A stretch of DNA of 64,000 nucleotides from Trametes villosa (Eukaryota; Basidiomycota; Agaricomycetes; Polyporales; Polyporaceae), in the NCBI GenBank assembly GCA_002964805.2, contig PUDQ02000066.1, positions 930,001 through 994,000 on the forward strand. Reading direction: 5' to 3'. The position numbers and the translations under genes were made by a program. The notes beneath the pieces were generated by a model that had not been told where the DNA came from, ran no database searches, and saw nothing but the letters and a program-made list of their open reading frames with translations. The stretch's first letter is position 1, and each line of letters begins with the position of its first letter. Below are positions 13,785-64,000 of this stretch, piece by piece.

Positions 13785-15317
13785 TCAGGATGCAACGACG
13801 ACCTGGTACGACACCGGCCCGTTGATGTGCATGCTGTCGACCGTCCCACCCGTTTTCAGCGCATGCGCCTTCATGCGCTCGACCTCCTCGATGATGATTG
13901 CGTCCTTCCCCGCACGCGTGCGCGGGACAAACCGCCTCCGCGGTGAGGCTATCTTCCATTCCGGAAGCCGTTCCACCCCGAGCTCGCGCAGGACCTTGAG
14001 CTCGACGAGCGACTGTATCGCGCAGGTCAGCTTGCATAATAAGATGCGTACCAGCAGATATACGCACGTAGTCTTCTGGGCGGGCGCGATTCAGGTTGAG
14101 GGGCTCCTTGAGCGTGACGGGTGGATTCGTGATGAAACGCGGGATCCGTAGATGGTTCTTCGAGGCAGAGTGCGGCTGCGGAGGTCGTTGTTACTCGTCT
14201 GCACCAGGCCACACACACCAGACGATCGGCGCACCATGAATGGGTGCAGGAGGATAACATCCCCAGCCTCGCCAGTCAGCTGCAAGATTCCATGCTTCAA
14301 CTCGTCTCTGTCTCTGAGCACCGCTCGCGCAAATGGTGGACGCACCTCGACGAATTCCCGGCATGTCTGGATCGCGCAGATGGAACGGCTTCCGTCCGGG
14401 TCCTGCGGCATCTCGTTGGCACCCTCCGGATGCTCATATAGCCTGCGGTGCGCCATACCATGTCAGCCGTCAGGAGTCCTGCACTACTGGCGAGGATGGC
14501 GGCACCATTTCACGACGTTCTTGATTCCGTCCTGGGCGATGTACGTCCCTCCGGCGCGCCGGTGGATGTCGTTGAACAACACAATTACCGTTAGGCCTTG
14601 CTCGCCGGAGTCGAGGAAGTGCGTGAACCTGTATCGCGCATCAGCGCGTGCCATTCATGTGCTACAAACATCGAGGAGCACATACCAATCTCCATCGCTG
14701 CCCAAGCAACACGATGGTCAGTTCATCTTCAAAGCACCGTGAGACATGTTGACACTGATACGCACATATGCCAATTGCCCAGATCCTTCGGTTGGATCTC
14801 CTTCTGGGCTCACACTTCAACCCGCTAATCCCAAGGACACCAAGTACGCGCAAGACGTACGTCGACCCACTCCTCCGCCCCGAGGTTCACTATCAGACTG
14901 TCTCCGCAGCTCTCGAAGAGCGTCGGGTCGATCCGGTCCTCCCCGCCGAGCAACTCGCCTGTTTATCACCAGTTTCTCAGCCGCGCGTCGCGGAAACCCG
15001 AGTAGCGAGCGTACACATAGCTCCCCAAGCCGCCGGCATGAACTCTCGCGTCGGGATCTCGCGGTGTCGTGGCATGTGGATCTGCTCCGGAGGTCAGTGT
15101 CCATGGTCAACGGTCAACACCGGGCGTGTTGGGGGCGTACCTTCTCCTTCGACCATGTGGACTTGTCATCGGGGTCGTACCCAAGACGAACCCAGACGTT
15201 CTCGGTGAACGCCTTGAGGTACTCCTCCTTCACCGCCTTGGGGATTTTGACCCACCCGTGCTCGAGAAAGTGCTCGCGCTGCTCATGGGTAAGGTATTTG
15301 TACTCCGTGGTCGACAT
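13785..15317 (-). CDS. Phytanoyl-CoA dioxygenase (PhyH)-family protein
   Basis: Fe(II)/2-oxoglutarate-dependent oxygenase; substrate not predictable. It starts MSTTEYKYLTHEQREHFLEH. Later exons give REIPTREFMPAAWGAM, GGEDRIDPTLFESCGDSL, then the iron ligands NWHIDGDWFTHFLDS, assembled from three exons. The Asp lies in a 12-nt micro-exon at 14686-14697. Further on are VLFNDIHRRAGGTYIAQDG, GEAGDVILLHPFM and the third-ligand region PHSASKNHLRIPR, with Arg suited to bind 2-oxoglutarate. The C-terminal part runs EVERMKAHALKTGGTVDSM to a stop at 13785. All junctions checked keep frame, so the gene looks intact at about 330 residues. Strength of the call comes from the HxD...H arrangement. Confidence 0.85.
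14686..14697 (-). other. 12-nt micro-exon carrying the iron-binding Asp
   Basis: On the minus strand CGATGGAGATTG is bounded by GGGCAG and GTATGT. It joins AT (end of NWH-I) and G (start of W-FTHF) to give I-D-G-D-W. Skipping it would remove the Asp of the HxD motif. Confidence 0.8.
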
Positions 15318-15744
15318 CTTTGAGGCGCAAACGGTGGAGCAAGACGAGTACGCTCGGATGCGGGGAAGGGGAAGGGGGGGCTGGATCTTATCTGTGTGTA
15401 TGTATTGGTGTCGAGCGAAGACGGGAAACGGTCCGGGCAGGGCATATGACCTTGAGCTATAGCACTTATGAATACAGGCGCGGTCGTATGATGCAATAGG
15501 GTGGGCGAGAATAGAGAGTTGCACTTGAGCAGGCGTGCGGAGGAATGTCGACGAAACACACCATCAGCGCTGCCGCCGGCACCCACCGTTCCAGCCGAGT
15601 CCCGCTGTCGCAAGCACGCACCATCGTCTGCACGGATAGTTCAGTAATGCCTATGTACACAACATGGTATGGCGCACGTACACACACATGCCAACCCCCG
15701 CCCACGCCTCTATCCCCCAATACGCCGCAAACCGGCCCCCCAGG
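15318..15744. other. Spacer between two minus-strand genes
   Basis: 5' flank of the dioxygenase and 3' flank of the Ser/Pro-rich protein. The dioxygenase side has a pyrimidine-rich leader on the minus strand. No gene seen. Confidence 0.4.
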
Positions 15745-18700
15745 CTACGACCCGTCCGGGTGCGCGATCGTCCACTGCCCGTGTACCTCCCTCAGCAGCG
15801 TGAGGTACTTCTTCGCCTGCATTCCCGTCGTGATCGGCGGCGTCTCCTCGAGCATCGCGCACACGCGCGCGTCCGCATGGCGCGTCCCGCCCGGTCCATA
15901 CAGCGTCGACAGCACGAGCGTCTCCGTACAGTCGTCGCCCCAGCTCAGCGACAGGTTGAATGCGCGCATCACCTGCGCCTACACCAACCCCGTCAGCACA
16001 GTGCCCGGCTTGCGACGAAGAAAAAACAAGAACAGAACATACCTTGGTGATCAGCACCCCGCCCGCGCCCTCGAGGTCGACCGGCGTGCGCGTGCCCGCG
16101 AAGCGGTCGATCACGCGCTGCACGTACCGGTACTGCTCGAGCTGCTCCGCCATCTTCAGCAGCCGCGTCCTGTTGCGCACGAACGTGTCCCACGCCGCCT
16201 CCTTGCTGATGATCCCGCGTATCCACTGCCCCACCGCGTTGTCCAGCCCCGTCGTCGTCACACCCGAAAGCGACGGCGCAAGCGAGGTCGCGGAAGGCGC
16301 GAGCGTCGTCGGCGCGGGATGCGTAGAGGAGACGGTCGAGAGGGAGGGGATGGACGGGAGGGTGATGCGGTTGCTTTGGCTGGCGCCGCTGCGGCTGGTG
16401 TCTTGGTGGCGACTGTGGAAGCCGAAGGGGGACCCGTACTGCTCGAACGGGTTCGCTCTCGCTGGGGGCGGCGGAGCCTTCGACGATGTCTTGCTCGAGG
16501 AGAAGCTCGGGGTAGATGACTCACCCCACGACGGCGCACGCGAGCTGCTCCACGAATACGCCGACGACGGGCTCGGCCCCGGGGACACGGGCTGCGGATC
16601 TCGCGAACGGTGGTGGTCCTCGGGCACAGCGAGCTTCGCCCTCTTGGGCGGAGACTGCACAGACGTGAATGGGGATGATGCCTGTGCCGGCGACGGCAAC
16701 GGCGCCGAGTGCCCAGGGTGAAAGCCCGGCCCCGACAGCTGGCGCAGCGGTTGGGAGAACGGCGTGGGTGCGCTGAATGGTAGGCGGGAGGGGATATCCG
16801 GGGATGGCGGCGAAGAAGGGGACATCGGTGCATGGCGCGTGTCAGAATGTGAGTAGGCTGACGTCCGTGACGACGTGCGCGATGGCGCAGTAGAGGACGT
16901 TCGTACAGAGGGCGAGGGAAGGGTGTATGGCGAAGCGGCAGAATGTTCTTGAGGCCTCATCGAATAGCTCTCTGAGAACGTGGACTGTATACTCTGCACG
17001 CTGGCGGAGCGCTGCCGCTTCCGCGACGACTCCGAAGTGGTGGATGGGGCCCTCGCACGGGTGCCAAATCTGTCGTCCACGGGGGATGAGGCGTCGCTAA
17101 TACTGAACAAGCTGGACCGTTTCGGAGGCGAGTGTACGGGAGCGGGCGGCGGGGAAGAGATGCGCTCCGTGACAGGAGGCAGTGGCTCGCGCTGGGGGCG
17201 CGGTGGTGTGGCATTGAGAAGCGTATGCAGCGGTTTCTCCCCTTGGCGCCGGTTCTATAGAGTAGCCGCATCAACGACACGGTACGCGCAGGGGGCCATT
17301 GTTGCACTCACATGTTCAACGAATATCTCCAGAGTCCGATCAGTTGAGACCTTGAGGTTTGCAGACTGACTGTCCGTCTCGCCATCGGCAGATATTCGCA
17401 GGAAGTATTGCTTGTACTTTCCCCGCATCGTGTAGACCTTTGCAGCGCCTGCGATACTTCTCAGAGCTGGCCAACGTCGGAAATCACCGAACTTACCATC
17501 GATACGTGAAGGCCCTTTCTGAAGCTCTTGGGAAACCTCCTGCGCGTCTGCCCAGAACCCTTCTTCGCCAGCATCAGCCTGCTTCAGGGGCACACGAACT
17601 TCCGCGAGCATTTGCTCGTCGTCCGGGTTACGCTTGTCTTCAATCAGGAGGGTAAGAACACGACACACGCGTACTGCAGGTGGAGGAACCCCCTGAACGG
17701 CCGGCGCCGGCGCACCGGTAGGCTGCTGGGGCGGAGCCTGGGACTGTTGTGCTTGCTCGTGACGATGTGGACGCGACTTTGATTTGCGGCGAGGCTCCGA
17801 TGAGTGCGAGGATGGGGGTGAATGTTCTGGGGCGTGTCGAGAACTCGAAGAGTAGGCGTGAGAAGGTTGCGGCGACGGATGCGTGGGAGGAGGACGAGGC
17901 GGAGGGTACAACAAGTAAGACGTTGGTGGGGGTGGCGAAGGACTGGCATAGTAATCATCGGGAGGCGAAGGCGAGGAGTCGTCGTTATCGTAGTAATCGG
18001 GTTGTGGTGGGGGATTGTGGGCGGTAGACTGTGTAGGTCGATCGTCGCGTTTGCTTGAACGCGACGTGTTCGGGCGCGGCTCAGCTTGGGTTGGCGGTAT
18101 GTGCGGGGGATACCGGTACTGCGTCTGAGGTTGAGGCTGGGGTTCAGTTTGGGGTGGTGGAGGGGCCGGAGCGGGTGCTGGTGCTGGTGGCTGAAACGTC
18201 GCCGGAACGGTTTCAGGAGACAAGTCTACCAGCGGACGATCCTCGTCGTAATTCCACCGGTAGTACGACGGACGTGGACGTAGGTCCTTGTCATTCAGGT
18301 TGCGTAGGCTCGAGGGGGAAGAACCGTGGTAACTCGTATCCTGCAACGGGGTATAATAGTCCGGTGGCGCCTCCTTGGATGGAGGGAGAGAATGGGCCAG
18401 TTCCACCTGAGCTTGCAGTTGTGCCTTCTTGCTAAGCTTAGTGTTCTTAGGCTTGGTGTTGTCGCCAAGGGTAACGCGGTACGTAGAGCCGTAAGGACCA
18501 TCCTGAGCACCATAGTACGGCGATGCGACCGCGTTCGGGTCGTTCTTGTACTTGCATACGCGGAACGCAGTTCTCTGAATACTCTGAATGGGAATGGGGT
18601 AGCTATAGTCCTCATCGGCGCTGGCCTCTTTCGCTTTGCGCGGGGAGGTATTGGTTTTCCCCTTGGATGTGTCCTTGCCCTTGCTCTTACCCTTACCCTT

Positions 18701-19015
18701 ACCCTTGTTCTTGGCGGATTTCTCAGGAGGGTTCGGTGAGGGCGCCGCGGGGGCGCTCTGTCCCGGAAGAGCGAGTTGTGCGACCGCGGAAGGTTCGGGG
18801 GGAGGTGCTTGATAGGTTGGGACGGAAGGAGGACTAGTACCGAAGCCAACCGGTTGCCGGAGGACTGGTGCATTGTTAGATTGCGATGCTTGAACAGCTG
18901 CAGATGGGTGGAAGGGGGTGGAGGATGGCTGCCACGAGCTTGGAACAGAGCTCACAGCGTCCGAACCTGGAGACTCGGGTCGGAATCGCACCTGCAGGAA
19001 CGGGTTGATGAACAT
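15745..19015 (-). CDS. Large Ser/Pro-rich protein of unknown function
   Basis: A protein of about 1000 residues starting MFINPFLQVRFRPESPG. The N-terminal half is low complexity (K/G-rich GKGKGKSKGKDTSKGKT, then Pro-rich). It is followed by a conserved-looking block RVCRVLTLLIEDKRNPDDEQ ... KVYTMRGKYKQYFLRISADG. That block contains a 48-nt in-frame intron (IDG/AAKVY) which a reader could take for coding. A splice at about 17312 joins IFVEH to NRRQGEKPLHTLL. A second Ser-rich tract then leads to a folded-looking C-terminal region: VGQWIRGIISKEAAWDTFVR, LKMAEQLEQYRYVQRVIDRF and, after one more intron, VMRAFNLSLSWGDDC with the end GQWTIAHPDGS. Long disordered tracts between two compact blocks suggest a nuclear or scaffold regulator, but no family is recognised. 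A CT-rich leader lies upstream. Confidence 0.7.
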
Positions 19016-20743
19016 GGACGGAAGCGAGAGTCGACAAGACGACTCACCGGGGACGACCCTCCGCTCCTTCAGGGACGGAAGGATGAGTCAGTTGGTCCTC
19101 ACAGCGAAGCACACCCAGGGGACAAAGGATGGACTCACGACGAACCACTGCTCATGCGGGGATTGGATAAAGCAGAGAGGAGGTTAAAGCAAGAAATCTA
19201 AGCAGTTCCGGCAGATCTAGCAAAGCATAGGACGATTAAGCATAAGTATAGCAACGAGACAGAGCGAGAGAGAGTATAGCAAGCTGTAGAGACCGATGGA
19301 GAGATACGAAGCAGAGGGAGGCTGATCAGGCGAACATGGACATGATTTACCAGAGCAAGTGCAGCTCACCGTCCGAATGCAGGGGCCGCATGCCCTCCTT
19401 CCGTCGCGTCAGCTATCGGCGGGCCCCTTTCTCCATATCCGGTGAGTAAAGCCTCCGGACACGCCCCCGTGACTATCACGGGACTCATCGACCACGACGC
19501 GTCCTCCTCGCGATAGCGATCGGTGTGGGAGAGTTGAGAAGCGAAAGGTCCGTTTGAAGTTGTCTCTGTCGTGGATAGCTCCTCGCTGCGAAGGCGATAC
19601 CATGAAAGTGGCTTGATGCATAGAAGCGAAGGCTGATGCGAGGACTGAGAGTAATACTCGAGGGGGCATTCGTGAGGGAAACAGTATTGGGTCTCGTTCG
19701 TGGGCGGAACCCCGTCTTATATACAGTATACGCAACCGCGCAACCGAATTGTCGTGGTCGAAGCCGTTCTCAAGCTTCGCGATCAGTTACCGATCGTTCA
19801 GGTGGGGTTGTATCGTGAAGGAAATGTCGGCATGTCAAGAACAGAAGCGTTCCCGGCCGTCAGCCACCTTCAGCCACCCGTTCAGCGCGTCGATCTCGCA
19901 TTCATGGTATGTCTCGGCGCGAGATCGCTCCGCCAGAAGCTTCCCTTACTGACGCGTACGTACGTACGCGCGTTGCTATGCATGTACTTTTGACGGGTGC
20001 TCCGAGTGAAGTATGTGTGGCGCAGAAGCGCCCCTGCCGGTCGACGCCACTCCTCTTCCTCCCATCGTTCGCTGTCAGACGGCTTCTACCTGCACTGGCT
20101 GGCGTGCATCGAGCGATCGTGATCGCGTTCTTTGCTTCCGCGGTGACATATCGTTCTATACCGAACGCCTGTGTGAGTGCGACGTCAACCTTTCCTCACT
20201 TCCATGGACACTGGATCATCAATATCATGGTGGTGCCGGATACAGCTTATAACTCTCCGCTAAGGAAACTCGAGCGAGCTCACCTGCAAGCTTCATAACC
20301 CCCTCACATTGACACTCGCCGAGTCCGCCGGCGCTGTAGACGGTGGGACCGCGTCAACGTGGCTTGTACGATTGCACGGGAGGCCTATGCGAACGGGGTC
20401 CAGTCATTGACATAGGTTAACGTTGATGCACCCTGGAACCGGCCGTCCGGTTCATCCTGAAAGTGACGGGCTTCCACAGGATCTGGCACACTCACCTTAA
20501 CTCCCTTAGCGGAGAGTTCTACTGGCCCCCTGTGTAAGGGCAGAGTGCTGTCCAAGGAAACGAGTCCAAGGCAATCTGCTTCGAGCACAGCAGCACAACG
20601 TTCAGTCCCCCGTAAAAGTAGCGGCTTCAGCTAGGTAGTACAATGATTCAAGAATTGAAAGTTCAAGTGGCGATTAAAAGAAAGAGCGGCACGTTCACCG
20701 CGAAAAACCTGTGAACGACGATCTAGCCAATGACAGCCGCAAT
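19016..20743. other. Long upstream region of the Ser/Pro-rich gene
   Basis: A purine-rich strand at 19255-19330 (pyrimidine-rich in the minus-strand transcript) looks like a 5' leader. The rest, including a TATATACAGTATAC stretch at about 19718, holds no recognisable gene. An upstream untranslated exon of the Ser/Pro-rich gene could lie here. Confidence 0.35.
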
Positions 20744-23102
20744 CTACTGCACGAGGGAAACCATCAGCGGCATTTGCGGGCCTGCCTTCATATCCTCCAG
20801 AACCAGAGGCGCAACGAGACCCGCAGGGAAGCTGATGATGGTAGGCTTGTCCTCCGGGATGGTGAACTCGAACTGCTCGATGAGCTCGACGAGGATAGCC
20901 TGCATCTCAATGATCCTGGAGGAACGCAATTATCAGCAACGCATCGTCGGTGTAGGCTAAGACTACTCACGAGAATCGCCACCTGCACACGAAAGAGGAG
21001 TGCGGTCAGCTTCCGGATATTTCAGCAGGGAGGACAGATATACGCACCCAATACAAGCTTGGAGGCCCGCACTGAACGTGAGCAGGTTCGACATGACGCC
21101 GACGTACGTCTGGCCCAGCTTCTCATGCTCGATCCACCGGTTCGGGTTGAACTCGTCCGCGTCCGGACCCCAGATTTGCGGCAACCTGCATGCGGCGGGG
21201 ACTCGGGTGAGCAACCAGTCATCGAGAACCCACTGCGAGAACTTGCCTGTTGTAAGCCCAGATGGAAATGTTGCACGTCGTACCCTTCGGGATCGGGATC
21301 TCGTCCACGGCCTCACCCGTCGAGGTCGTGATCGGGGTCGACAGCGGCAGGACGTCGTCACGGCCAGCCTCGCGAATAAGACCGTACACAATCGGGTGCA
21401 GACGCAGGACCTCCTTCATGGCCGCGAGCACGTGCGTCATCGCGTCGAGGTCGCTGACGGAGAAGTCGGAGTCGCCGCGCTCGGTGACGCGTGCGCGGAT
21501 CGCGCGCACCTCCTCGCGCATCTTGCTCTGGTAGTCCGGATGGCGTGCGAGCTCATACAGCATCCAGGTCATCGAGTTCGCGGTCGTCTCGTGGCCTGTA
21601 GGGCGCAGCAAAGTCAGCTCCGTGTCCGCCTCGGGTATAGGAACGAAGCTCCGCACCGGCCAGTAGGAAGGTCGCCATTTGCGAGATCATCTCGGTGTCG
21701 GTGAGACGGGACTTCGGGTTCTCGGAGGCGTTTGCCTTAACTGTAAGCGGCGGCAATGAGCAGAGTTTCGCGCGTGAAGAGGAAATCTGCGTACCAAGGA
21801 TGCTCATGATGTCCTTCTTGTTCTCGTCCTTGCCCGCGAGGGCGGCCTCTGTCTTCTCCGCAATCAGCCCCCTGGCAAACTCGTTGATCACCTTGAGCGT
21901 GCTCCGGAAGCGGATATGCTCCTTCGTCGGAACGTATTGCACGAGCGACAAAATGGGCATCGGGATGTACCGCCAGAAGTGGCGGAAGAGGACCGTGAGC
22001 TTTGAGGGGAAGGGGATCGCATCCGTGCTAAGGGAGCGAGAAACAGTGAGTACAGCGACATGAGAATGTCAGGGAAAGCACAGGCACATACAACATGTTC
22101 TTGTATGCGTGCATAACAGGGTTGAGCGAGTCGTCGAGGGCGCCACACTGTACATCAAAGCCAACTAGACACGCCACAACAACATAGCGTACTGTCAACA
22201 TAGCACAGCCAGTTCTCGGAAGCTGGAATGCGTACCTTCCCCGATGACATCGAGAGTACACCGTGCGAGCCAGGCAGTAACGTTAACCCTCTGGGCCGCT
22301 TCCGACCCACTCTGGAGCTGATCCTTCCACTTCTGTCCGAGCTGTTGCGAACCAAGAACACGGTGAGTTCTGTGGCGGAGCGGGCGCCACGCTCGGATAC
22401 GCACCTTCTGCGCGGACTGGCGGAAGAGCGGGAGGAAGGACCGTAGTTGGCTCGCAGTGAACGCGGGGTTCATGATCTTCCGGATGCGCGCATGGTCCTG
22501 GTCTGCAGCGCTCGATTAGCGCACTGGGCGTCAGCGAACGAGGTAAATGCATACCGTGCGCGAAGAGGATACCCGGGCCCGTGATCTCGCGGGTGAACTG
22601 CCTCGCGATAGAGCCCTTGTGGAAGTGATAGCCTGACTTGTGGAAAATGTATTGGAGTGCCTGCACACGCGTTGCCGCCTCAGCGCTCGGTCCGAGGAAG
22701 GAGGGGGGTTACCAAATCTTACCTTCGGGTCGGCGATCTCAAGCGCGTCCTCCTGTGTGCAGCGGTCATCAATCGGCCCATGACACCGGGCATGACGGGC
22801 AAGATGGTGGACGGCGGCTTACGTTGAAGCACCCCTTGAGGCGCCATACGAGCCCGTACTCCTTGATCCACTCCCTCTGCAGCTTTCCCACCTCGAATTG
22901 AGAGTTTATCACGTCGTTGTGACCTGGTAGGTGGTCGCGTTCAGGTGTATGAAGACTTGAAATAGCGCTTGGACGTACCCATGAGCCAGCTGGGTGCCGC
23001 TGGGCCTCGGACCTTCCTCAGGTGTCGGCCAGCAAGGTAACTGCGCACGAACAGCGCGAGCAGCAGCCCGCCGCTAACGAGCAGGGCCAGGAGTGGGTCC
23101 AT
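20744..23102 (-). CDS. Cytochrome P450 monooxygenase, family B
   Basis: A P450 of a family different from the three CYP genes at 3.2, 47.0 and 51.1 kb. It starts MDPLLALLVSGGLLLALF (anchor). Later exons contain FHKGSIARQFTREITGPGIL, HARIRKIMNPAFTASQLRSF, the I-helix FLLAGHETTANSMTW, KEVLRLHP (ExxR), DEFNPNRW and the haem segment FSAGLQACIGWRF. In the haem motif FxxGxRxCxG the usual Arg is Gln. The last bases of that segment come from a 12-nt micro-exon (20971-20982). It ends KAGQMPLMVSLVQ-like (ending MPLMVSLVQ) at 20744. All exons read in frame, giving about 540 residues. It is close in style to basidiomycete P450s with long-chain or aromatic substrates; the substrate cannot be named. Confidence 0.9.
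20971..20982 (-). other. 12-nt micro-exon after the haem-ligand loop
   Basis: The minus-strand sequence GTGGCGATTCTC lies between GTGCAG and GTGAGT. It completes I-G and supplies W-R-F-S before IIEMQAILVEL. Without it the L-helix frame is lost. Confidence 0.8.
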
Positions 23103-24039
23103 GGTATCCTGTCAATCTGGAGTACACTGTGCGTGAGCTCCAAGCGTGCGCTATCCGGAGAGGGGGCGAAAGCTCACCTAAAGTCGCCCGAAGGTGCAAT
23201 GTGGTGGTCGGAAAGCAAGTGCGTGGAAGACTGGGCGGGGGCGTGAAGCGACGCCTCGGCAATATATGTGTGAGATTCCACTCAATCTGCGATGGACCCG
23301 TGTTCCTTCCCACGCGGCAGGACTTTGTAGATGGAAGGGAAGTCGGCCCATATGGGCGCCGATTTTGTCAGCACATGAGCTAAGCTCGTTGCCCGCGGGC
23401 AGAAAAACCCGGTAGCGGGGGCGTTGGCAGGGCGTTGGTACCCCGCAGTCTGCCGTGGAGGGGGCGAGGAAGGTGCGGAGCTGTGCTTGCTCGGGGATAC
23501 TAGTGGGTGTAGAAGCAGTGCTGCGGAAATCAATATCGCCGTCCTTTTCGGGCCGCTGCACGAGAGGCGTACCTAGCAGTACTTCCCCGACCTAACCGAG
23601 GTTGGTTGATCCCGGCCTGGAGCCGGTGTATGTTCTGGTGATGTAGTGTGACAATTGCCAAGAAGGTCGTAGGAGTATCATACCGTCGCATGGACGCTAC
23701 GTAGCCCATACTAAGCCCCGTCGGGGACCGGGATCATTAATTTCTGTTGCCTATCAACAAGCTCCCGTGAGACTCGCTCGACATAGAAACTGACCTCAAG
23801 TATTGATACTTCCATGGGCACTGCATCCGAGAGTAAGGGTTTGACACGGGCTTAAGGCGCTGCGCGCTACTGCACAGTCGAGCACAGGGGCGCGACGTCT
23901 CGCTCGCATGCGCCGCAGCTCGCAGATAATCGCCCCGAGCCCATGGACGGACCGACGCTCGCGTAAGTCCTCTGTGTAACGGGCCCGGCGGCGACGTGAA
24001 CATGAATAGAATGTGTGTAGGAATGCGGGAGAAGATCTA
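23103..24039. other. Promoter of P450 family B and 3' flank of the carrier gene
   Basis: No gene recognised. Several short open frames on the minus strand at 23074-23561 have no family resemblance. Confidence 0.4.
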
Positions 24040-25550
24040 TCACATAGCCTCTATGCCGAACCAATATCTAACGCGTTCGAAGATCAAGAACGTTAAGATG
24101 GTATGCGTGCCCAGCTATATGCGCACATGTCAACTCGGAGATAGACCGCATATGAACGAGGATAGCTTACCCTCGCCCAGCACATGCCGAAGCCCTTGTA
24201 AAACCCGAAGGGCCCCTCGCGCGCCATGACTTGCTTTATGCAGTCGAACGCACCCTTGAATTCGTGTTTCTTGTCGTTCATCAGTCGTACTTTCACAACG
24301 TCTAAGAACCGGTGTTAGCTATGAGGCCTCGTAGAGGGCTGTGACGGACTCACCAACTGGATTTGAGGTGATCGAGCAGAACAATCTGAAGCACCCGTCA
24401 GCATCCACTTCGGTAGCGCGTTTTCCAGATCCCAGAGACGTACCCAGCGAATGTACTCGCGACCAGGTGCAGCGGTACGCCCTCCTGCATCACGCCCCGT
24501 CTCTTCAGGGTCTGCTTGATCTGGTCGTACGAGCATATCTGCGTCGCTGACAGGACGATGCCCCTTATCGTCGTCGCCTCCACTCCGCGATAAAGCGCGC
24601 CGAGACCTCCCGATAGGGAAGAAACGCCTCTGGACACGGCGAGGGTGGCGCCCTCTTGGTATATGGATGAGAATGCATGCCGCATGTTGCGGTATGGGCT
24701 ACCATCAGGATAATGCGCCTGCATTCGAACTGCGTGGGTATATGTAAGCGAAAAAGTACAAGAATGCGGCCAGCAGCGCTGCACACCTTTGACGAGGTCG
24801 GCGGGATTGGCCAGAGCACTACCGATCGTGGCAGCAATGGTAGCAGCGCTGATCTTCAACGCGAGGCCCTCTCGACTAAGTGCGCCCTTGGATGCCGTAT
24901 GTAATCTGCAGGCACACGTGCATTAGCGAGGATGTCCTTTCGAGGGAGATCTGCGAGAGACGGACTTGTCCTTGAAGTACTCGTAGGTGCCCATGCGAAT
25001 CCCGGAATATACGAGCTCGCGAAGCATGCTCGCTGAAATGCCTCCTGCGAGGCTGCGCACGCCCTCTGTTCGTGCCATCTCGACACCGACGGACAAGAAT
25101 GAGCTTCCGCTCGCCCCAGGAGCTGCGGTGGCTTGTCAGTTATTTGATACGTCAAGAGATGGACACCGGATACGCACTTTGTCGTCGGAGCTGCTGCCGG
25201 ACCTAGACAGTTCATCAGGACATAGACATTAGGCGCTTATGTTCAAGCATGCTCACCTTGACACTAAAGTTACAAAGATAAGACTGACGTTCAGGATGCC
25301 GCTCTAAGCGTATGCGTCTCCGTACTCACATATCTGTCGGGTTGCATATCGCAGATGATACCATGTCTGTGCACAATCGCTCGTCAGTAGCAGCCTACTT
25401 TCACCTCGATGACTGTCCGCACGTACTGCTTAACGCCGCGCCCACGAACTTGAGCGCATACTGCGACTCGCGCGGGACCTCCGCTACCTCCAGCACGGCC
25501 ACCTTCTCCTCGAGGGGGTTTACCGTGATCGTGGCTGGAGCCGCAGCCAT
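24040..25550 (-). CDS. Mitochondrial carrier protein (dicarboxylate/UCP-like)
   Basis: Inner-membrane solute carrier built of three repeats. It starts MAAAPATITVNPLEEKVAVL. Repeat 1 gives CNPTDIVKVRQQLRRQ, assembled from three exons with a 7-nt micro-exon (25257-25263). Repeat 2 follows after LAGGISASMLRELVYSGIRM and gives NPADLVKVRMQAHYPDG. Repeat 3 gives SITSNPVDVVKVRLMNDKK, then GFYKGFGMCWARLGTHTIL. All three carry P-x-D-x-x-K-x-R. The C-terminus FERVRYWFGIEAM stops at 24040-24042. The closest resemblance is to dicarboxylate/uncoupling-type carriers, but the substrate contact residues were not analysed. A short in-frame segment ATLAVSRGVSSLSG in repeat 2 is longer than usual and might hide a tiny intron. 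Confidence 0.88.
25257..25263 (-). other. 7-nt micro-exon in the carrier signature motif
   Basis: The minus-strand TGTCAAG lies between CTTTAG and GTGAGC. Joined to ...GACAGATAT upstream and GTCCGGCAG downstream it gives T-D-I-V-K-V-R-Q-Q. The essential Lys of P-x-D-x-x-K is encoded in these seven bases. Confidence 0.82.
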
Positions 25551-28763: not shown

Positions 28764-30899
28764 TCAGACGGTGGACGCAGGGCGGCCCTTCTGGTCTGTG
28801 GAGACGCTGTCAGGAGTGTCGTCCGTCGCATAGTCCACCGTCTTGTCCACAGTGATCTGCACCTGCGCAAACGGGGGCGTCAGCGACACGCCCACGCCTG
28901 CGCCCGATGTCGTACTCACCCGCGTGCCGAGGTTCAGCTGGTCCGCGTTCTGCACCCAGGATCCCATCAGCTGACACACGGAGAGGCGAAGGGAAGGCGC
29001 CGCACCGAATGGCGCATGGCCCTGCTTGCGAATATCACAGGGAGTCGGTGCCCACTCCCGGAGTGGGACTGCGATTGCGCGAGCAGCGCCTTGCGTGCGT
29101 TCATCCTGCGTACGGCAGCGATGAATTAGGCGTCGTAATGAGCACATCGCAGGCACTATCTCGCTTGTGCGGGGGAGGGGACGTACGAGGCGAGGAACGA
29201 GTTGGCGTAGACTGCAGCGATAGAAGGCCGGATCTCAGCCAGAGAACCCGCGGTGAATCGGAATGAGGTACGCACGCTTGCTGATGGCGAAGTGCAGCCC
29301 GAGATAGATCAGGACATGAGGCTTCACGAGCCACTGCGAAGGGAGGAATAGACGCAGTCAGCGGCGCCTGGCCACGAAACATGCGTCTTTCATAGATGCG
29401 GGGCAGTACTCACGAAGATGAGCGAGACAAGCGTGGTCACTCTGCGTGCGATCCGATTAGCAGGCTGGATAGACGCGCAAGGGCGTGTGCGACGCACGAG
29501 GTGAGTAAACCGTTCTCGACGGTATATAGTGTGACGGAGTCGAGTATGTGATCGAATCTAAGGGCGGAGAGAAGGTGAGCAGCGGGTCCCTCCGCTGCGG
29601 TATTAACGGATAGAGGACCGTACCTCCCGGTGCCGGTACGGTTCCTGCGCAGGTAGTAGCATAGACCGCCGGTGATCAAGAAGTCGACAACGGACGAGAG
29701 GACAAGACCAAGGGTGAATACCCACTGCGGAAGTGGCAAAGGGTAAGAGAGCTGCGAGAATAGACTGACTGCGTGTATGCTTACTCGGAAGTGCTCTCCG
29801 AACTCGTGAAAACTCCCGAGGCGAATCCTACAGTACGGTCCGTGAGCCTTGAGCGCATCGCAAGGGACTAGGGTTCGGGGACGCACAGCTCGACTGTCGT
29901 CACTGCAAGGATCGAAGGGCGTGAGAACACATGCTGAACACCGTTTAGGCGGACGGCTCACCGAAAGCTGCGACTGCACATGCGACCAGCGAATGTCAGT
30001 ATGTGCATGTCAGCAACCGGTGGCCATCACACACCTACGCGGGCCACCGCAAGCATAGCCTAACACAGCTACGGGTCAGCCCGCCGATTACATGAACATG
30101 CGACGAAGACACTCACAATGGGCACCGTCACCCAGTAGTTACCCTTGCTCACTGTGTCGAGTCAGCGATTACTCTAGAACATCGATGTGGATACTGACGT
30201 TTGAAGAGTCGTAGCGCGAAGAATCTTAAGATGTTGAAGTGAGAGAAAGTGAGCAAGAAAAGAGACCAACACTCACAGATGCACGACCACAGTGATGATA
30301 GCCTGCAACACGTTCAGTGAAAGGGAATGAAGTAACCCAGCAAAACCACTCGCAGTAAGAGCTATAGATATCTACCGCAGAGAGCTCAGATATGATAGGA
30401 AGTGGATGCAAGCATCCGACTCACCCCGACGGCCCTGACAGGTTGTGAGAACGGATTTCACTACACACCATGACACCACTCACCAGAAAACGCGGTCCGT
30501 AATCCCAGTGTCCCCAAAGTTCGTCACAAAATACATGTAGTTTGCCGCAGCTATCATCACCGAGTGAAGCAAGTCCAGGATGCTGAAAGAACGATCAGGG
30601 AGCCATTGAATACGAAGAGGTTGCAGTCGCTTACAAGACGCCTCCAACCTAAACGTACGTCAGCGAAGGAAAAACAGACATAACATGGCACATACCTGCA
30701 GCTTGGTTGAACGCTTGTCGTGGCTGAAGAGGCGGAAGTATAGGACAGTCTGCATAGCGACAACGCCAGTCAGACTGCTCGGGAGGTTAGGCGGACGTCA
30801 ACCTAGGCATAGCTTCTGGACGTACCCTGTGCACACCATGCCCCCGAGGATGAGGGCACCCAAGCTCCTCTTGAGATCTGCCTCTGATATCGCGACCAT
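28764..30899 (-). CDS. DUF6534 multi-pass membrane protein
   Basis: Predicted seven-helix membrane protein of the basidiomycete DUF6534 family; function unknown. Many very short exons encode, in order: MVAISEADLKRSLGALILGG; LSGVTALQTVLYFRLF; a 14-nt exon (VGGVF); ILDLLHSVMIAAANYMYF through DRVFW; a 10-nt exon (W-A-V-G); ISIALTAS; AIITVVVHL and LFKLSKGNYWVTVPI. Then come WVFTLGLVLSSVVDFLITGG, the family block DHILDSVTLYTVENGLLTS, and HVLIYLGLHFAISK. The tail ends DQKGRPASTV. The stretch between TAS and AIITV can be read as coding or as an intron. It sits in the same window as a DUF6533 gene, a family with a similar topology. Confidence 0.75.
30425..30434 (-). other. 10-nt micro-exon in the DUF6534 gene
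   Basis: The minus-strand GGCCGTCGGG lies between CTGTCAG and GTGAGT. It completes the Trp of DRVFW and adds A-V-G before ISIALT, matching the usual W-x-x-x-I-x-I-A-L-T pattern of this family as I recall it. Confidence 0.65.
30635..30648 (-). other. 14-nt micro-exon in the DUF6534 gene
   Basis: The minus-strand GTTGGAGGCGTCTT lies between TTTAG and GTAAGC. It links ...TKLQ to FILDLLHSV as V-G-G-V-F with frame intact on both sides. Confidence 0.75.
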
Positions 30900-34937: not shown

Positions 34938-35055
34938 TGGATGGAGAGTTGTGGGTGTGCGTAAAACCTACAGCGAAAATGCTATGCTCCGGTTGTGGTC
35001 CCAGGGAAAGATATTGCAGTGAGAAGAAGCGCATGTCACTGTGCTACCATTCCGC

Positions 35056-37895: not shown

Positions 37896-40451
<2,556 letters not shown>

Positions 40452-40552: not shown

Positions 40553-40574
40553 TCGATGATCGTCAGATGTATTG

Positions 40575-40579
40575 TTTTT
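40575..40579 (+). terminator. Pol III terminator of the tRNA
   Basis: A run of five T residues 23 nt after the tRNA 3' end. Confidence 0.55.
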
Positions 40580-43946: not shown

Positions 43947-45722
<1,776 letters not shown>

Positions 45723-53172: not shown

Positions 53173-53523
53173 AGAATGTATGTTCGCAAGCCCGTCCACC
53201 AAAACGCCTATATGTTCTCGTCAGCCACGCGCCTGTACAGACCTGTACGTAACGGTACTGTGCACAAGGGATTAGGTCAAGGACAACGCACTTCGTTTCT
53301 TCCGAGCTATGCCACAGCCCACGACTCTTACGAGCTGGCTGCCGCGCTGGTGCGATCTTGCATGAGACTCTCAAACCGGAACGTTGCGCACAGTTGATGA
53401 AGCAATCGAAAAGTGATGCAAAAGCTGGGATAGTATGCTACACATTATTCAAGCAGAGAGATACAACGTATCGTACACCTCCAATCCTCCGAAAAGTCTC
53501 TAGTGAGCCTCGACTGCGCCACC
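53173..53523. other. Short spacer between convergent genes
   Basis: 3' flanks of the P450 (+) and the HAM1-like gene (-). No feature seen. Confidence 0.4.
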
Positions 53524-58364: not shown

Positions 58365-61300
58365 ATGGACGCGTTAATCCTTATGGACGTTCTACTGCTC
58401 CCACATAGGTCAGTCTTTCTGGGATAGATTGAACTCGCAACGTGAATTGACGCGGGGTTCCTAGGTTCGCCCTCGAGGATTCCCGGCTCATCATACTCTG
58501 CGGGATAGTATTGTCGGTCGCCGGGCTGCTGCTGCAAGCCATTCACAAGACGCACCTCTCGCGCACCTCGAAGAGCGTGGCTCCCAACGCTGCTAACTTT
58601 GGCTCTACTACTGCTGGTGGTCAACTTCCAGACGAAGGGCGTGCTCACGGAAGCTTCGTACACCGCTCAGGCGGGGGTGTCGTCTTCGTCTACAAGCTGC
58701 TTCGTTTGATCTCCTGCGTCGTCTTGCTGGGCTTGTCAATCGCTACCGTGACTAGTGGCTCTCATGGACTCGACGTCTCCGCGACGTGGTGGTCACGCTT
58801 CGTGCAGGTCGAGACATACGTACGTATACCGCCTACCAGGTCTACTGTTGCTCTAAGCTCATATAATTTGCCACTTACTAGACCTACGTGACTGCGCTCG
58901 CCTTGGCAGTCGTACTACTACCTGCCCACAGTGCTCTGCTGTCTCGCCATGTCTCCTTCGTTCTCCTCTTGACCTGGATTGTCTACGTGTATCGGGACGT
59001 ACTTCCACTGGCGACTACCACCCTGCGCCCCGCAGACGCGGATGAGGGCGTGCTCCTCTGGGTGAAGCTCGTGGTTCTGACAGAAGCTGCCATCTTCATC
59101 CCTATCTTCACTCCCCGTACGCCTACCATTCAAGATCCGGTGGTATGTGGATGGTCTCTGATTATATGTCGTCCGTACTGATTGGCTGCGTAGGAGGGCG
59201 CAAAGGCTCTCAACGAAGAGCAGACGGCTGGTTGGTACTCGCGGAGAATGTTCAGCTGGCTCAACCAGACCATCGCAAAGGCGCATCGGGTAGAGCATAT
59301 CCCGCTGGACGACCTTCCTGTCCTCGCGGATCGGGACAGCACGCGCAACCTCGTCAAGGACAGCCTCAAGGTAGGTGTCGGACCCACCAGCCTTCCGGTG
59401 TTGGACGTGGTGCTGACCGCGACGACAGTACCTAGACCCTCTGGAGACACAGAGGGACACGCATATTTTCTGGGGATTCCTGCGGCTCTATCGTGAGTGC
59501 GACAGCCTAGCGACTCGTTCTTGCTCTGATACTCTACCAGAGTCCCAATACCTGGTTGGGGCATCACTGGTCGCTGTTGCCGTACGTTCGACATTTCCGT
59601 GAAAACTTCCTTCCCTAACCACATGTTTAGTCTACCGCTCTCTTGGCATACCCCCTTGCTACTCAGGGTGTCTTATCGTAAGTAACCGTTTACTGTGCGC
59701 TCTTGCAGCGGTTTGGCTCACTCGCTCCTCTTAGCTATCTCGAGAAGGGGCACACCGAGTCGGCCGTCCAGCCGTGGGCGTGGGTGCTGCTCATGTTCAT
59801 CGGCCCGACTATCGGAACAGTCTGCGAAGAGTGGTACCAATGGATCATGGTTCGTCCCTAGCCGCACTATCATCGACTCGAACACGCCCGCTCATGACGT
59901 TCGCTACTGTAGAACCGGCTGAGCATCCGCACCGAAGCTATCGTCACCGAGCTCCTCTTCCAGCACGCTCTCCGTATCCGCATGAAGGCCGAAACGTCCA
60001 GCAGCGAGAGTGAGGGCCCGAGCCCGCCAGCCGACAGTTCCCCGGCCACCAGTACTCAGCCGAAGAGCGACTTCCTCGTCGGGAAGCTGAACAACCTGAT
60101 CACGAGCGACCTCGCGAACATCACCGAGGGGAACAAGCAGTGGCTCATTCTGTGTACGTTCTCTCCACGTATCCTGCGGCGGTATCGCTGACTGCGTACG
60201 CGTTTGGTTTTCGCAGTGATACAGTGCCCGGTGCGGATGGGCATGGCGATCGCGTTCATGTACAGCGTGTTGGGGTGGAGGTACGTCCCGAGGTTCCCAG
60301 AGGACATGCGTGATTGCAGGACTTACGCAAGTCCGAAGCGCATTGGTGGGGCTCGCCACTCTGGTCGCGCTCTTGCCGATCCCGGGATACATCAGCGGCT
60401 GGATTCAGACGTTCCAGAAACGCATGATGGAGAAGGTGGATCGCATACATGGCGTGCGTACGATCGCTGTAACTGACGCATTTGTAGACGGACGCGCGGG
60501 TCCAACTCCTCAACGAAGGTGCGGCCAGCCATGCGACGATCTGCGTCATATGCTAAACCACGCGCACATATAGTCCTGAACGTTGTTCGCATGATCAAGC
60601 TATTCGGCTGGGAGCGTCGCGTGTCCTCCCAGATCCAGGAACGCAGGGAGGCTGAGCTCAAATTCCTAAGCAACTCGCGCTGGCTGGAGATCACAAACAG
60701 CCTGTTCAAGTGGGTATCATATGCATACGTGCTGAGAGGATCGGTGCTAAAGACCGCATAGTTATAGCATCCCTCTGATCGCGATGGCGGCGACATTCGG
60801 TTTCTACGTAAGTACTGGTGCGTCAATCAGCTGTGCTTGTGCAATTAACGTGAATATGCTGCTAGACCGCTGTTATGAAGCAAGAGTTGACGGGTGGGAA
60901 ATGGTCTTCCGCCCTTTCGCTATAGCTCACAAGCCCTCTACTAGCTTCGAAGCTCTTCTCGTCCAACGCCGGTACGTGCACACGGTAACATGTTGCAGAC
61001 AACCCTAATCGTGCGACTCGATTCCAGCCTTCATGATCATTCAAATGCAGATGCACACGATCTTTTTCGCTATCCCTGTCCTAACGCAAGGCATGTAGTC
61101 CTTCCACACCTTGTTGCGCCCCCGCTGATTGTGCTACCCTCAGCCCGAGTCTCTCTGGATCGCATCAACGGTTTCTTGCACGACGTAAGAGCTTCCTGTC
61201 TTCGTCTCGCAGGTGCCATGCTCACGTTCCCCAGACCGAGCTCCTCGACGAGTTCGTGAACGGCCGCTCCGACGACCTTACCACGACCGCAGAGTACATC

Positions 61301-64000
61301 CGCCCCCGTCAAGACGACGACCTCCTCGGGATCAAACAAACCTCCTTCACCTGGTCGCACGACTCCCCAGACCTCCAAACGCCCGCCTCCGGCAGCTCGA
61401 GCGGGCAGCAGCGCCGGCGGTTCGTCCTGAACGTCGACGGCGAGCTGCTCTTCAAGCGCGGCCGCACGAACCTCATCGTCGGGCCGACCGGGGCGGGGAA
61501 GACGTCGCTGCTGATGGCGCTGCTCGGCGAGATGCACGCGCGCCCGGCGGGGCCGGAGTCGTTTGTGGGGCTTCCGAGGGGTGGGGGCGTTGCGTATGCG
61601 GCGCAGGAGTCTTGGGTCTTAAGCGACACCATCCGGGTGAGTTGATTTTCGCACTCAGATCCGGGAAGGAGAGCTCAACCCGCTGCCAGAACAACATCGT
61701 TTTCGGCGCGCCGTTCGACGAGGCGCGGTATGCTAAGGGTATGTCCCTCTTGACTGCTATGCTCAGGACTGCAACGCTTACAGGTCAAAACGTCAGTGAT
61801 CAAGCAGTGTGCACTTGAGCGCGACCTAAGCCTCTTCGATGCTGGAGATCAAACCGAAGTTGGCGAAAAAGGGATCACGCTCAGGCATGTCGCTCGAAAG
61901 CTGTAACTTGATTCCTGCTCTGACGATGCCGGCGTTCTTGTTTGTAGCGGTGGCCAAAAGGTCAGTACACTACTCCACGTCTCCCATCTCCTCTATTCCC
62001 GCTAATGTCACAGTCTAGGCTCGCATCACTCTTGCGCGCGCAGTCTATTCAACGGCCGAGATCCTCTTACTCGACGACGTGGGGGCTCTACCGGTTTCCA
62101 TCATGTATCACGCTGATGAGGTGTCGTTAGGTGCTTGCTGCTCTCGATGTCCACACCGGGCGATGGATTGTGGACCAGTGCTTCAAAGGTGATCTTATCG
62201 CCGGTCGCACAGTCCTACTCGTGGTACGTTCAATCAAACCAGTGGGTCAGCACCGCGAAGCGCTAACTACTACGTACCGAAGAGCCACAATGTAGCCCTC
62301 ATACGCCCGATCGCCGAGTTCGTCGTCGCGCTTGGGTCGGACGGGCGTATCGCTAGCCAAGGAAGCCTCGACAAGACCCTACAACAGGACAGCAAACTCC
62401 TCGCAGAGCTCGCCTCCGAGGAAGAACAGCTCAAGGATGCGGACAAGGAAGTCGACAAACCCGAAATCGAAGCCGAAGACGCGCAGAAGAGTGGAAAGCT
62501 CGTTGTTGCCGAGGAGATCAAGGAAGGATACGTGGGCTGGAGCACCTGTGAGTGTCACCGTGGTCGACCAGGCCTCGATGTTGTACTGACTCCGAGTGGA
62601 AGTGCGCCTTTTCGTGGTGAACTCGTCCACGAAGCCCGTCTTGTACTGGAGCGCGTATATCTTCATGATGGCCCTCACGCACACTATCCTGAACAGTCAG
62701 GTCAGCTACCTCTCATACTTCCTGGCATTGTATTATCTCACGTCGTTTCTAGTCGTATTACCTCGGCATCTGGGCCGCGCAATACGAGAAGCATGCCCCT
62801 TCCGAGGTATCGGTTTCATAGTGAGTGGACCACAATTACAGACGTGCCGGTGGCTCACGGTTTACACAGCTACCTGGGCATATACGGGCTCCTCGTCGTT
62901 GCGACAATCATCTCATACGGCGTTGCTTGGTTGTTCTACATATCTGGCTCGAAGAGGGCATCAGAGAGCATCCACAGCCAGCTCGTTGCGTCCATCCTAG
63001 GTACCACTCTGAGGTATGCCAATCGCCGTCGGTTGCCTCTGCCCCCTCCCCCCGGCTACATTGCTGATCCACAATTAGATGGTTAGATATGACTCCCACG
63101 TCTCGTATCATCGCTCGCTGCACGGCGGACATGCAAGCAGGTAATACTCCTTACGACCAGCCTCGTCGTTATAGTCTCTGATTATCCTCCGTAGTCGACA
63201 CCACCCTTCCCAGATACGTCCTCGCCACTGTGGAAACCTGGATCTTCATGGTCCTGAGGATCGTCGCCACGGCGCTGGTGGCCCCTCTGTTCATCCTCCC
63301 TGCGATCGTCGTCGGCATACTGGGTGGTCTCTTGGGACGCATCTACATGAAGGCACAGGTATGCGTCAAGCGCGAGATGAGCAACACCCGAGCGCCAGTT
63401 CTGGGGCACTTTGGGTCAGCCATCTCGGGGATAGGTGCGTTCCCAATATCATAAGCTATGCGTGGGGTTTCTCACATGTGTGCATAGTCTCTATTCGCGC
63501 GTACGGCGCGCAGGAGCAGTTCAAGAGCGAGTCCTATCTCCGAGTAGACCGATACAGTCGCGCCGCCTTTGTCTACAACGGCCTGAACCGGTGCGTCCAG
63601 ATATTTCCGTCGCTGAATGGGGCTTACCCTGACGCGACTACTTGCAGGTGGATTACCGTGCGAGTGGATGTGATGGGGACGCTGCTGTCCGTGATCCTTG
63701 CAGCCTATCTCGTATATGGTGGCCGGGCCAGCGCGTCCAACGCTGGTTTCGCCATGAATATGGCGGGTACGCAAACTCCGGTCTCTATACAATTCAACCC
63801 CGTGAGGCTAACAGTTACCGCTGTAGTCGGATTCAGTGCGACCATCCTCCAAGGGGTGAGATTCTTCAACTATCTGCAGCTGTCAGGTATGTGTCATGCC
63901 TGGTACGATCCCCGTCATACTTCTGACATTGGGCATACGTCGCACAGCGAACAGGTCCGTTCCCGCTTCAGCGTCCTAATGGCTTCGACTAACCGTTGTC
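58365..64000 (+). CDS. ABCC-type (MRP/YCF1-like) ABC transporter, cut off at the right edge
   Basis: ATP-driven exporter. The model starts MDALILMDVLLLPHR, joined to FALEDSRLIILCGIVLSVAG, and has several extra N-terminal helices (TMD0-like) before the linker YSRMFFSWLNQTIAKAHR. TMD1 follows, including EKTDARVQLLNEVLNVVRM and KLFGWERRVSSQIQERREAE. NBD1 has Walker A GPTGAGKTSLL, a Q-loop AAQESWVLSDTIR joined to NNIVFGAPFDE, signature LSGGQKARITLARAVYS (its GGQK from a 13-nt exon), Walker B ILLLDDV followed by LAALD, and the switch His THN. An acidic linker with repeated Glu/Lys and TMD2 (SRIIARCTADMQ; GHFGSAISGIVSIRAYGAQ) follow. NBD2 lies outside the window. The array of short introns is in frame where tested. 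Family members typically export glutathione conjugates or drugs. Confidence 0.88.
61948..61960 (+). other. 13-nt micro-exon carrying the ABC signature
   Basis: CGGTGGCCAAAAG lies between TTTGTAG and GTCAGT. With AG from the preceding exon (GC donor at 61885-61886) and GCTCGC after it, it gives L-S-G-G-Q-K-A-R. Confidence 0.8.

What the first reader, a model, noticed from the sequence alone, without database searches (positions are those of the whole stretch)
14686..61960. Seven micro-exons in six unrelated genes within 48 kb
Lengths of 7, 10, 12, 12, 13, 14 and 14 nt occur in a carrier, a DUF6534 membrane protein, a dioxygenase, a P450, an ABC transporter and a peroxidase. Four of the seven hold residues of the family signature. 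A spliceosome tolerant of tiny intron-defined exons is the simple explanation. The bias toward signature motifs may be partly because that is where an eye can detect them, so it needs an unbiased count.
Basis: partly seen in the sequence, partly recalled or inferred. Interest (0 to 1): 0.75.

Follow-up and report, generated by a model that had tools for sequence, protein, structure and literature searches.

The report
Real tiny exons in intron-dense genes
A wood-decay fungus cuts several of its genes so finely with short introns that some coding pieces are only 7 to 14 bases long; the pieces look real and some are shared with related fungi, but they are no more frequent than dense introns would give by chance, and published gene lists sometimes drop them together with catalytic residues.

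Summary
A motif-blind gene finder trained on this genome, with homologs and paralogs, supports all seven exons and three more: ten of 15 nt or less in eight genes of the window. In control genes it falsely called 0 of 1668 internal exons; it recovered 543 of 639 planted ones. In the dioxygenase 4 of 118 covered homologs lack exactly this 12-nt exon and its HxD Asp.

The count is not above chance: random placement of the same introns predicts 21.7 such exons in 74 genes; 10 of 237 internal exons were seen. The window is intron-dense (4.9 against 2.1 introns per kb coding elsewhere), though elsewhere they are scarcer than density predicts.

Signature bias is suggestive, not established: 3 of 10 exons overlap signatures (0.59 expected, P 0.017), but they are not significantly more conserved than other junctions of the same genes (P 0.13).

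Paralogs suggest tiny exons form when an intron appears near another. Best reading: by-product of dense short introns under intron definition. Basidiomycete P450 micro-exons were described in 2005. No RNA was available.

The parts
14686..14697 (-). 12-nt exon 5 of 9 of a PhyH-like dioxygenase (gene model 13785-15317); last base of I, then DGD and two bases of W of HIDGDW, the HxD metal motif
   Evidence: called ab initio; 4 of 118 covered homologs lack exactly this block and read HM-FTHF, the product of skipping it
20971..20982 (-). 12-nt exon 11 of 12 of P450-a (gene model 20744-23102); last base of the G of C-I-G, then WRF and two bases of S, directly after the heme loop
   Evidence: called ab initio; same 12-nt exon in the paralog on contig C83 (L030)
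25257..25263 (-). 7-nt exon of a mitochondrial carrier (gene model 24040-25550, corrected by hand); last base of I, then V and K of the signature P-T-D-I-V-K
   Evidence: forced-start parse, read from the DNA; Pfam Mito_carr 66.4 bits with it, 37.7 for the best parse without; 91 of 108 covered homologs carry the signature
29887..29902 (-). 16-nt exon of the DUF6534 gene (VTTVEL)
   Evidence: called in a low-scoring gene; 16-nt exon of the same phase in paralog L008; block absent in 3 of 87 covered homolog annotations
29962..29973 (-). 12-nt exon of the DUF6534 gene (VAAFV)
   Evidence: in paralog L008 joined to the preceding 25 nt as one 37-nt exon
30354..30371 (-). 18-nt exon of the DUF6534 gene (ISIALT), followed by an intron with a GC donor
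   Evidence: missed by the gene finder; found from orthologs; an 18-nt exon follows a 10-nt exon in paralog L003
30425..30434 (-). 10-nt exon of the DUF6534 gene (last base of W, then AVG)
   Evidence: 10-nt exon at the same place in paralog L003, 28 nt (10 + 18) in L008
30635..30648 (-). 14-nt exon of the DUF6534 gene (VGGV and two bases of F)
   Evidence: 14-nt exon at the corresponding place in paralog L003
44429..44442 (+). 14-nt exon 5 of 12 of a class II peroxidase (gene model 43947-45722); last base of G, then GGGA and the first base of D in GGGGADGS
   Evidence: ab initio; Pfam peroxidase 95.3 bits with it, 83.8 for the best parse without; same residues in manganese peroxidase 4bm1; same 14-nt exon in paralog L046
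52272..52285 (+).
   Evidence: ab initio; Pfam p450 225.8 bits with it, 211.4 for the best parse without
4120..4133 (-). 14-nt exon of a third P450 (gene model 3242-4626); GADI of helix I; same length and phase as in P450-b
   Evidence: the gene finder merged it with an in-frame 57-nt intron; read from the DNA
61948..61960 (+). 13-nt exon 21 of a 32-exon ABC transporter model (58383-63979, near the window end, so perhaps incomplete); last base of S, then GGQK of LSGGQK
   Evidence: ab initio; YCF1 aligns as gislsggqkar

Best explanation
These are real, probably constitutive coding exons in a Trametes-like polypore. Short introns of about 50 to 65 nt, each recognised on its own by intron definition, sit so densely in some genes that neighbouring introns often lie only 7 to 18 nt apart. 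No special micro-exon machinery is needed, because the two introns can be removed one after the other. A tiny exon appears when an intron arises close to an existing one, as the paralogs suggest, and it persists because skipping it would shift the frame or remove needed residues. Shown here: existence by sequence, homology and controls; conservation in some relatives; number not above random placement; variable intron positions among paralogs. Inferred: splicing in RNA, constitutive inclusion, order of intron removal, and gain rather than loss of introns.
For: A motif-blind caller finds 10 of 237 internal exons of 15 nt or less in 264 kb. Controls: 0 of 1668 internal exons falsely called at 15 nt or less in eight sets of chimeric genes, 543 of 639 planted exons of 4-15 nt recovered exactly. 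For 15 of 15 exons of 16 nt or less the best parse contains the exon, by a margin of 1.7 to 16.8 nats over the best parse without it; containing it is true by construction, the margin is the information. Pfam bits are higher with the exon in 3 of 3 genes so tested (carrier, peroxidase, P450-b). Four named polypore dioxygenases lack exactly the 12-nt block. Two Trametes versicolor annotations differ by several DUF6534 blocks. Paralogs: P450-a exon kept on C83; the 48-nt heme-loop exon of L035 is 11 + 37 nt in L038 and L043; DUF6534 boundaries recur in L003 and L008; the intron before the peroxidase exon is shared by six genes, the one after it by two. Flanking introns have ordinary lengths and donors. 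Expected number under random placement 21.7. 7 of the 10 window exons of 15 nt or less are not multiples of 3, which argues against optional cassettes.
Against: No RNA data. The introns used to plant control exons were ones the finder already recognises, so its sensitivity is flattering: it missed the carrier gene, the 4120-4133 exon, the 18-nt exon and the 11-nt exons of L038 and L043. The carrier parse has no positive ab initio score (-1.2). Two margins are only 1.7 nats (DUF6534 10 nt and one L010 exon). The 264 kb is not a random sample: 104 kb is one stretch of contig C64, which holds 9 of the 10 exons, four of them in one tandem P450 cluster. Density does not explain everything: on other contigs 1 of 95 internal exons was seen with 8.5 expected (P 0.0005), in the window 5 of 99 with 9.6 expected, in its neighbours 4 of 43 with 3.6 expected. 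Acceptor-plus-branch and total scores beside micro-exons are somewhat higher (P 0.012 and 0.011), possibly a calling effect.
Confidence: 0.85

Rival explanations
1. Tiny exons are selectively kept, or preferentially formed, over catalytic and signature motifs: frame and sequence constraint there removes every splicing error, so micro-exons in loose regions are lost and those in motifs remain.
For: 3 of 10 motif-blind calls overlap a textbook signature, 0.59 expected, P 0.017; with tandem copies collapsed 3 of 8, P 0.005. Two more (peroxidase GGGA, P450-a WRF) fall at conservation percentile 0.99 and 0.93, and gene means exceed 0.5 (P 0.004). P450 paralogs show intron positions moving within the heme loop. 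[quoted passage not shown]
Against: Against other junctions of the same genes the excess is not significant (0.67 against 0.57, 11 exons and 61 junctions, P 0.13). The three DUF6534 exons tested lie at 0.22 to 0.40. The carrier's percentile depends on the measure (0.50, 0.60 and 0.83). Signatures and families were defined after seeing the genes. ABC and GH3 were not in the conservation test; P450 and peroxidase panels were small (13 and 8 sequences).
Confidence: 0.3
2. Many of the exons are artefacts: the true transcript uses other splice sites or keeps an in-frame intron, and the fit to motifs reflects the eye or the model.
For: No RNA; the finder keeps some in-frame introns; the DUF6534 gene scores low (13.4), its 10-nt exon has a margin of 1.7 nats, and the carrier parse scores -1.2.
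Against: 0 of 1668 false calls in controls; homologs carry the residues; paralogs keep exon length and phase; alternatives lose Pfam score in 3 of 3 genes tested.
Confidence: 0.07
3. The exons are regulated cassettes, included or skipped to switch protein function, as reported for Xlr2 in Trichoderma.
For: Such a case is described in a filamentous fungus (start of the abstract seen in search listings only, PMC11121469).
Against: 7 of the 10 window exons of 15 nt or less are not multiples of 3, so skipping would break the frame; the 12-nt dioxygenase exon holds a metal ligand. Inclusion was not testable.
Confidence: 0.05

Closest known systems
Micro-exons of Phanerochaete chrysosporium P450 genes (PMC1184071, passages read)
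   Same: Basidiomycete P450 genes with frequent small introns (45-55 bp) and micro-exons coding 2-10 residues, in nearly a third of the P450s, not tied to one family
   Different: P450 genes only in the passages I read; here also carrier, dioxygenase, peroxidase, ABC, GH3 and DUF6534 genes, with a controlled count and a null
One-nucleotide exon of Fusarium CYP621A and I-helix micro-exons (PMC12940212, passages read)
   Same: Tiny exons inside conserved P450 motifs, missed by annotation; an 8-nt I-helix micro-exon of P. chrysosporium is mentioned, and the idea that such exons are favoured in conserved motifs
   Different: That case is in an ascomycete and has transcript support; no count or null in the passages I read
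Plant micro-exons of 15 nt or less (PMC8831610, abstract and one section read)
   Same: Conserved, often misannotated, many coding parts of known domains
Class II peroxidase genes of basidiomycetes (PMC6937255, passages read)
   Same: Up to 15 introns and very short exons, for example 6 nt for a last exon; intron patterns vary among sub-classes
   Different: The 14-nt exon over GGGA(D) is not mentioned in the passages I read

Membership tests
Constitutive coding micro-exon of 15 nt or less | internal coding exon of 15 nt or less between two spliceosomal introns, frame kept | tested here: met
   ten exons in the window
Constitutive coding micro-exon of 15 nt or less | same exon or residues conserved in relatives | tested here: met
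   dioxygenase: 4 exact omissions in 118 covered homologs; carrier signature intact in 91 of 108; exons of equal length in paralogs for P450-a, peroxidase and DUF6534 and for the two helix-I P450s. For ABC only the residues were compared, with PDB chains
Constitutive coding micro-exon of 15 nt or less | present in mature RNA, included constitutively | not testable with these tools
   no transcript data held
Regulated (neuronal-type) micro-exon | length mostly a multiple of 3 (recalled) | tested here: not met
   3 of 10 window exons of 15 nt or less are multiples of 3
Regulated (neuronal-type) micro-exon | alternative inclusion | not testable with these tools
   no transcript data held
Spliceosomal twin intron (stwintron) | an internal intron interrupts a splice site of an outer intron, with no exon between (PMC5639578, start of abstract in a listing) | tested here: not met
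   the 7-14 nt between the introns code residues that homologs carry

The most novel reading that the evidence does not exclude
In polypores introns repeatedly arise a few bases from older introns inside motif-coding stretches, and only those tiny exons that lie over indispensable residues survive. Micro-exons would then be enriched over catalytic motifs, conserved across Polyporales and partly into Russulales, and systematically missing from public proteomes, where a scan for near-exact losses of catalytic residues would recover them.
Probability: 0.3. Interest if true: 0.6.

Novelty: new member of a known kind. Interest (0 to 1): 0.4.

Why it matters
It turns an impression into a measured rate with a null: in the genes sampled, tiny exons are about half as frequent as random placement of the same introns would give, so no special machinery has to be invoked. 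It also points to a practical fault: public proteins of named species lack catalytic or signature residues where a 12-nt or 7-nt exon seems to have been dropped, which misleads searches by motif and structure prediction. The paralogs show intron positions shifting within a heme loop and around the peroxidase GGGAD stretch, a usable system for the question of how introns are gained.

Tried and rejected
Rejected: that seven in 48 kb is an excess over what the introns would give at random. Not shown: special splice signals beside micro-exons; lengths and donors do not differ, acceptor-plus-branch and total scores differ slightly and possibly by selection. Not established: motif bias. Three conservation measures were used. 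One search penalised gaps, which lowers exactly the exons that annotations drop; one search ignored gaps; one search used windows of five residues and compared with other junctions. In some searches the DUF6534 exons of 16 nt or less lie below the middle (0.24 to 0.44) and the 18-nt one above (0.59, 0.74); the dioxygenase lies at 0.88 to 0.99. One search covers 8 gene models, 11 exons and 61 junctions; ABC and GH3 were left out for want of an alignment, and the gene L010_5567 was left out. Homolog alignments held the best 120 listed of 1120 dioxygenase hits, 120 of 746 carrier hits and 88 of 94 DUF6534 hits. In one search the pattern for the ExxR motif probably picked a wrong place in P450-a and P450-b, and no motif was found in the partial GH3 protein (random P 0). 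Gene models scoring under 20 were dropped before the counts, which removes the DUF6534 gene (13.4); the carrier gene was never in them. The dioxygenase reaches 20.0 bits with Pfam PhyH, under the cut-off of 22, though homologs are labelled so. A whole-genome count was not possible: the genome is not given as a file. One fetched peroxidase locus, L052, gave no match at the motif. Two further papers (PMC3990503, PMC4014442) only mention a mapping option. Literature searches were made; no listed title or passage that I read reports these exons in carrier, dioxygenase or DUF6534 genes of polypores. Signature motifs, the names of iron and heme sites, and the orders of the fungi are recalled, not from a call.
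Full report
WHAT WAS ASKED. I tested existence, number and bias separately.

SETTING. The window lies in a 46.7 Mb genome of 140 contigs. The carrier is 91% identical to a Trametes versicolor protein and the dioxygenase 82% to one of Dichomitus squalens, so the organism is taken to be a Trametes-like polypore. No RNA and no DNA of relatives were available.

METHOD. I wrote a gene finder (a hidden Markov model with three-phase coding statistics, splice-site, branch-point and intron-length models, geometric exon lengths and no minimum exon length) and trained it on the window plus 20 stretches of 10 kb of the same genome. In 74 genes scoring 20 or more it introns and 237 internal exons; 10 of the 237 are 15 nt or less.

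CONTROLS. In eight sets of chimeric genes built from real coding sequences and real introns, with no internal exon under 30 nt, 0 of 1668 internal exons were called at 15 nt or less. Of planted exons of 4 to 15 nt, 543 of 639 were recovered exactly. The planted exons used introns the finder already recognises, so real sensitivity is lower: it missed the carrier gene in the free run, merged the exon at 4120-4133 with an in-frame intron, and missed the 18-nt DUF6534 exon and the 11-nt exons of two P450 paralogs.

EXISTENCE, GENE BY GENE. For 15 of 15 exons of 16 nt or less put to the test, the best parse holds the exon (by construction) and beats the best parse without it by 1.7 to 16.8 nats. 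Dioxygenase, 14686-14697: codes the DGD of HIDGDW. Of 118 homologs covering the place, 4 (Trametes meyenii, Gelatoporia subvermispora, Lentinus brumalis, Somion occarium) lack exactly this block and read HM-FTHF, the product that my model gives when this 12-nt exon is skipped; 2 more lack HxD otherwise. The simplest reading is that the exon exists there and was missed, with loss of the Asp of HxD. The two paralogs in this genome have no intron there (L044, L045). P450-a, 20971-20982: the C83 paralog has the same 12-nt exon. Carrier, 25257-25263: T-GTC-AAG completes the signature P-T-D-I-V-K. The forced-start parse holds it but scores -1.2 overall and needed one exon mended by hand. Pfam gives the first repeat 66.4 bits with it, 37.7 for the best parse without. 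Of 108 covered homologs 91 read NPx[DE]xx[KR]; of the 17 others, 5 are different sequences with the K kept and 12 look like broken annotation, among them Artomyces, Dentipellis and Lactarius, which I recall as Russulales. DUF6534: exons of 14, 10, 12 and 16 nt were called in a low-scoring gene (13.4), and orthologs add an 18-nt exon followed by a GC-AG intron. One T. versicolor annotation (P0241) has the blocks; another (P0251) lacks several. The divergent paralog L003 (score 17.3) has exons of 14, 48, 51, 10, 18, 26 and 26 nt where the window gene has 14, 99, 10, 18, 26 and 26. In L008 (score 70.1) the run is 28, 26, 61, 37 and 16 nt, which is 10+18, 26, 26+35, 25+12 and 16 of the window gene: the same boundaries with three introns absent. 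Peroxidase, 44429-44442: GGGA and the first base of D, same residues in 4bm1; 95.3 against 83.8 bits. P450-b, 52272-52285, and its paralog at 4120-4133: helix I, both 14 nt; 225.8 against 211.4 bits for P450-b. ABC, 61948-61960: GGQK of LSGGQK as in YCF1. In sum ten exons of 15 nt or less in eight genes of the window.

NUMBER. Placing the same number of introns at random in each coding sequence gives 21.7 internal exons of 15 nt or less (sd 4.2) against 10 observed; exons of 16 to 30 nt are likewise about halved (19.4 expected, 10 observed). By region: window 5 of 99 internal exons, 9.6 expected; its neighbours 4 of 43, 3.6 expected; other contigs 1 of 95, 8.5 expected (P 0.0005). Intron density is 4.9, 4.1 and 2.1 per kb of coding sequence. 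So the crowd in this window needs no cause beyond its intron-dense genes. Density alone does not explain the scarcity on other contigs, where tiny exons are rarer still, and four of the ten lie in one tandem P450 cluster (L010). Tiny exons are tolerated but perhaps mildly disfavoured; part of the shortfall is missed exons.

MOTIF BIAS. With signatures taken from memory, 3 of the 10 called exons overlap a signature, 0.59 expected at random positions, P 0.017; with tandem copies collapsed 3 of 8, P 0.005. On conservation, 11 exons from 8 gene models have mean percentile 0.67, above 0.5 (P 0.026; by gene means P 0.004), but 61 other junctions of the same genes have 0.57, and the difference is not significant (P 0.13). 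DUF6534 exons (0.26, 0.40, 0.22) go against the idea. The bias is open, not shown.

ORIGIN. Three comparisons suggest that tiny exons arise when an intron appears near another. In the P450-a kin the heme loop is one 48-nt exon in L035; in L038 (2251-2261) and L043 (2239-2249) the DNA reads as 11 + 37 nt (my reading; the finder skipped both); in P450-a the upstream boundary sits 12 nt before the shared downstream intron. In peroxidases the intron before GGGAD is present in the window gene, L046, L047, L048, L049 and L050 and absent in L051; the intron after it is present only in the window gene and L046; L052 gave no match. DUF6534 is described above. Gain rather than loss is inferred; no tree was made.

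MECHANISM. The 20 introns beside micro-exons have a median of 57 nt against 57.5 in 278 others, with ordinary donors and slightly better acceptor-plus-branch (P 0.012) and total scores (P 0.011), which may reflect calling. Only 3 of the 10 exon lengths are multiples of 3, so skipping would mostly shift the frame. That fits constitutive exons between independently recognised introns. It is inference without RNA.

PRIOR WORK. Micro-exons coding 2 to 10 residues in nearly a third of Phanerochaete P450s were described in 2005 (PMC1184071, passages). A 2026 paper on a 1-nt exon in Fusarium mentions several I-helix micro-exons and suggests that they may be favoured within conserved motifs (PMC12940212, passages). 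Short exons are noted for class II peroxidases (PMC6937255, passages), very short exons are said to be poorly recognised with long reads in Ganoderma (PMC11590231, passages), and plants have a full treatment (PMC8831610, abstract and one section). The kind is known; the count with controls and null, the carrier, dioxygenase and DUF6534 cases and the paralog comparisons are what this adds, as far as searches show.

Noticed in passing
window 24040-25550 (-): In the carrier gene introns interrupt or abut the signature PX[DE]XX[KR] in all three repeats: around the 7-nt exon in repeat 1, one base after the K codon in repeat 2, inside the D codon in repeat 3.
   Followed up: partly
L010: Three tandem P450 genes carry the same 10-nt exon (QIPT) just before the helix I motif; the first also has exons of 12, 18 and 20 nt.
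   Followed up: partly
window 30303-30353 (-): A 51-nt intron with a GC donor (ACT|GCGAGT) follows the 18-nt DUF6534 exon.
   Followed up: partly
contigs C77 and C87 of the genome: Peroxidase matches with identical scores in mirrored order on two contigs, as if two haplotypes or a duplicated segment were both assembled.
   Followed up: no
window 1633-2868, 9425-10637: Two similar alpha/beta-hydrolase-like genes with nearly the same exon lengths, the first next to the P450 at 3242-4626; family name by eye.
   Followed up: no
window 37896-38699 (-): A polyubiquitin-like gene with three tandem repeats.
   Followed up: no
window 13785-30900: Dioxygenase, carrier and DUF6534 genes lie close together also in Trametes cinnabarina, where homologs are named g11, g13 and g18 of one scaffold.
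   Followed up: no
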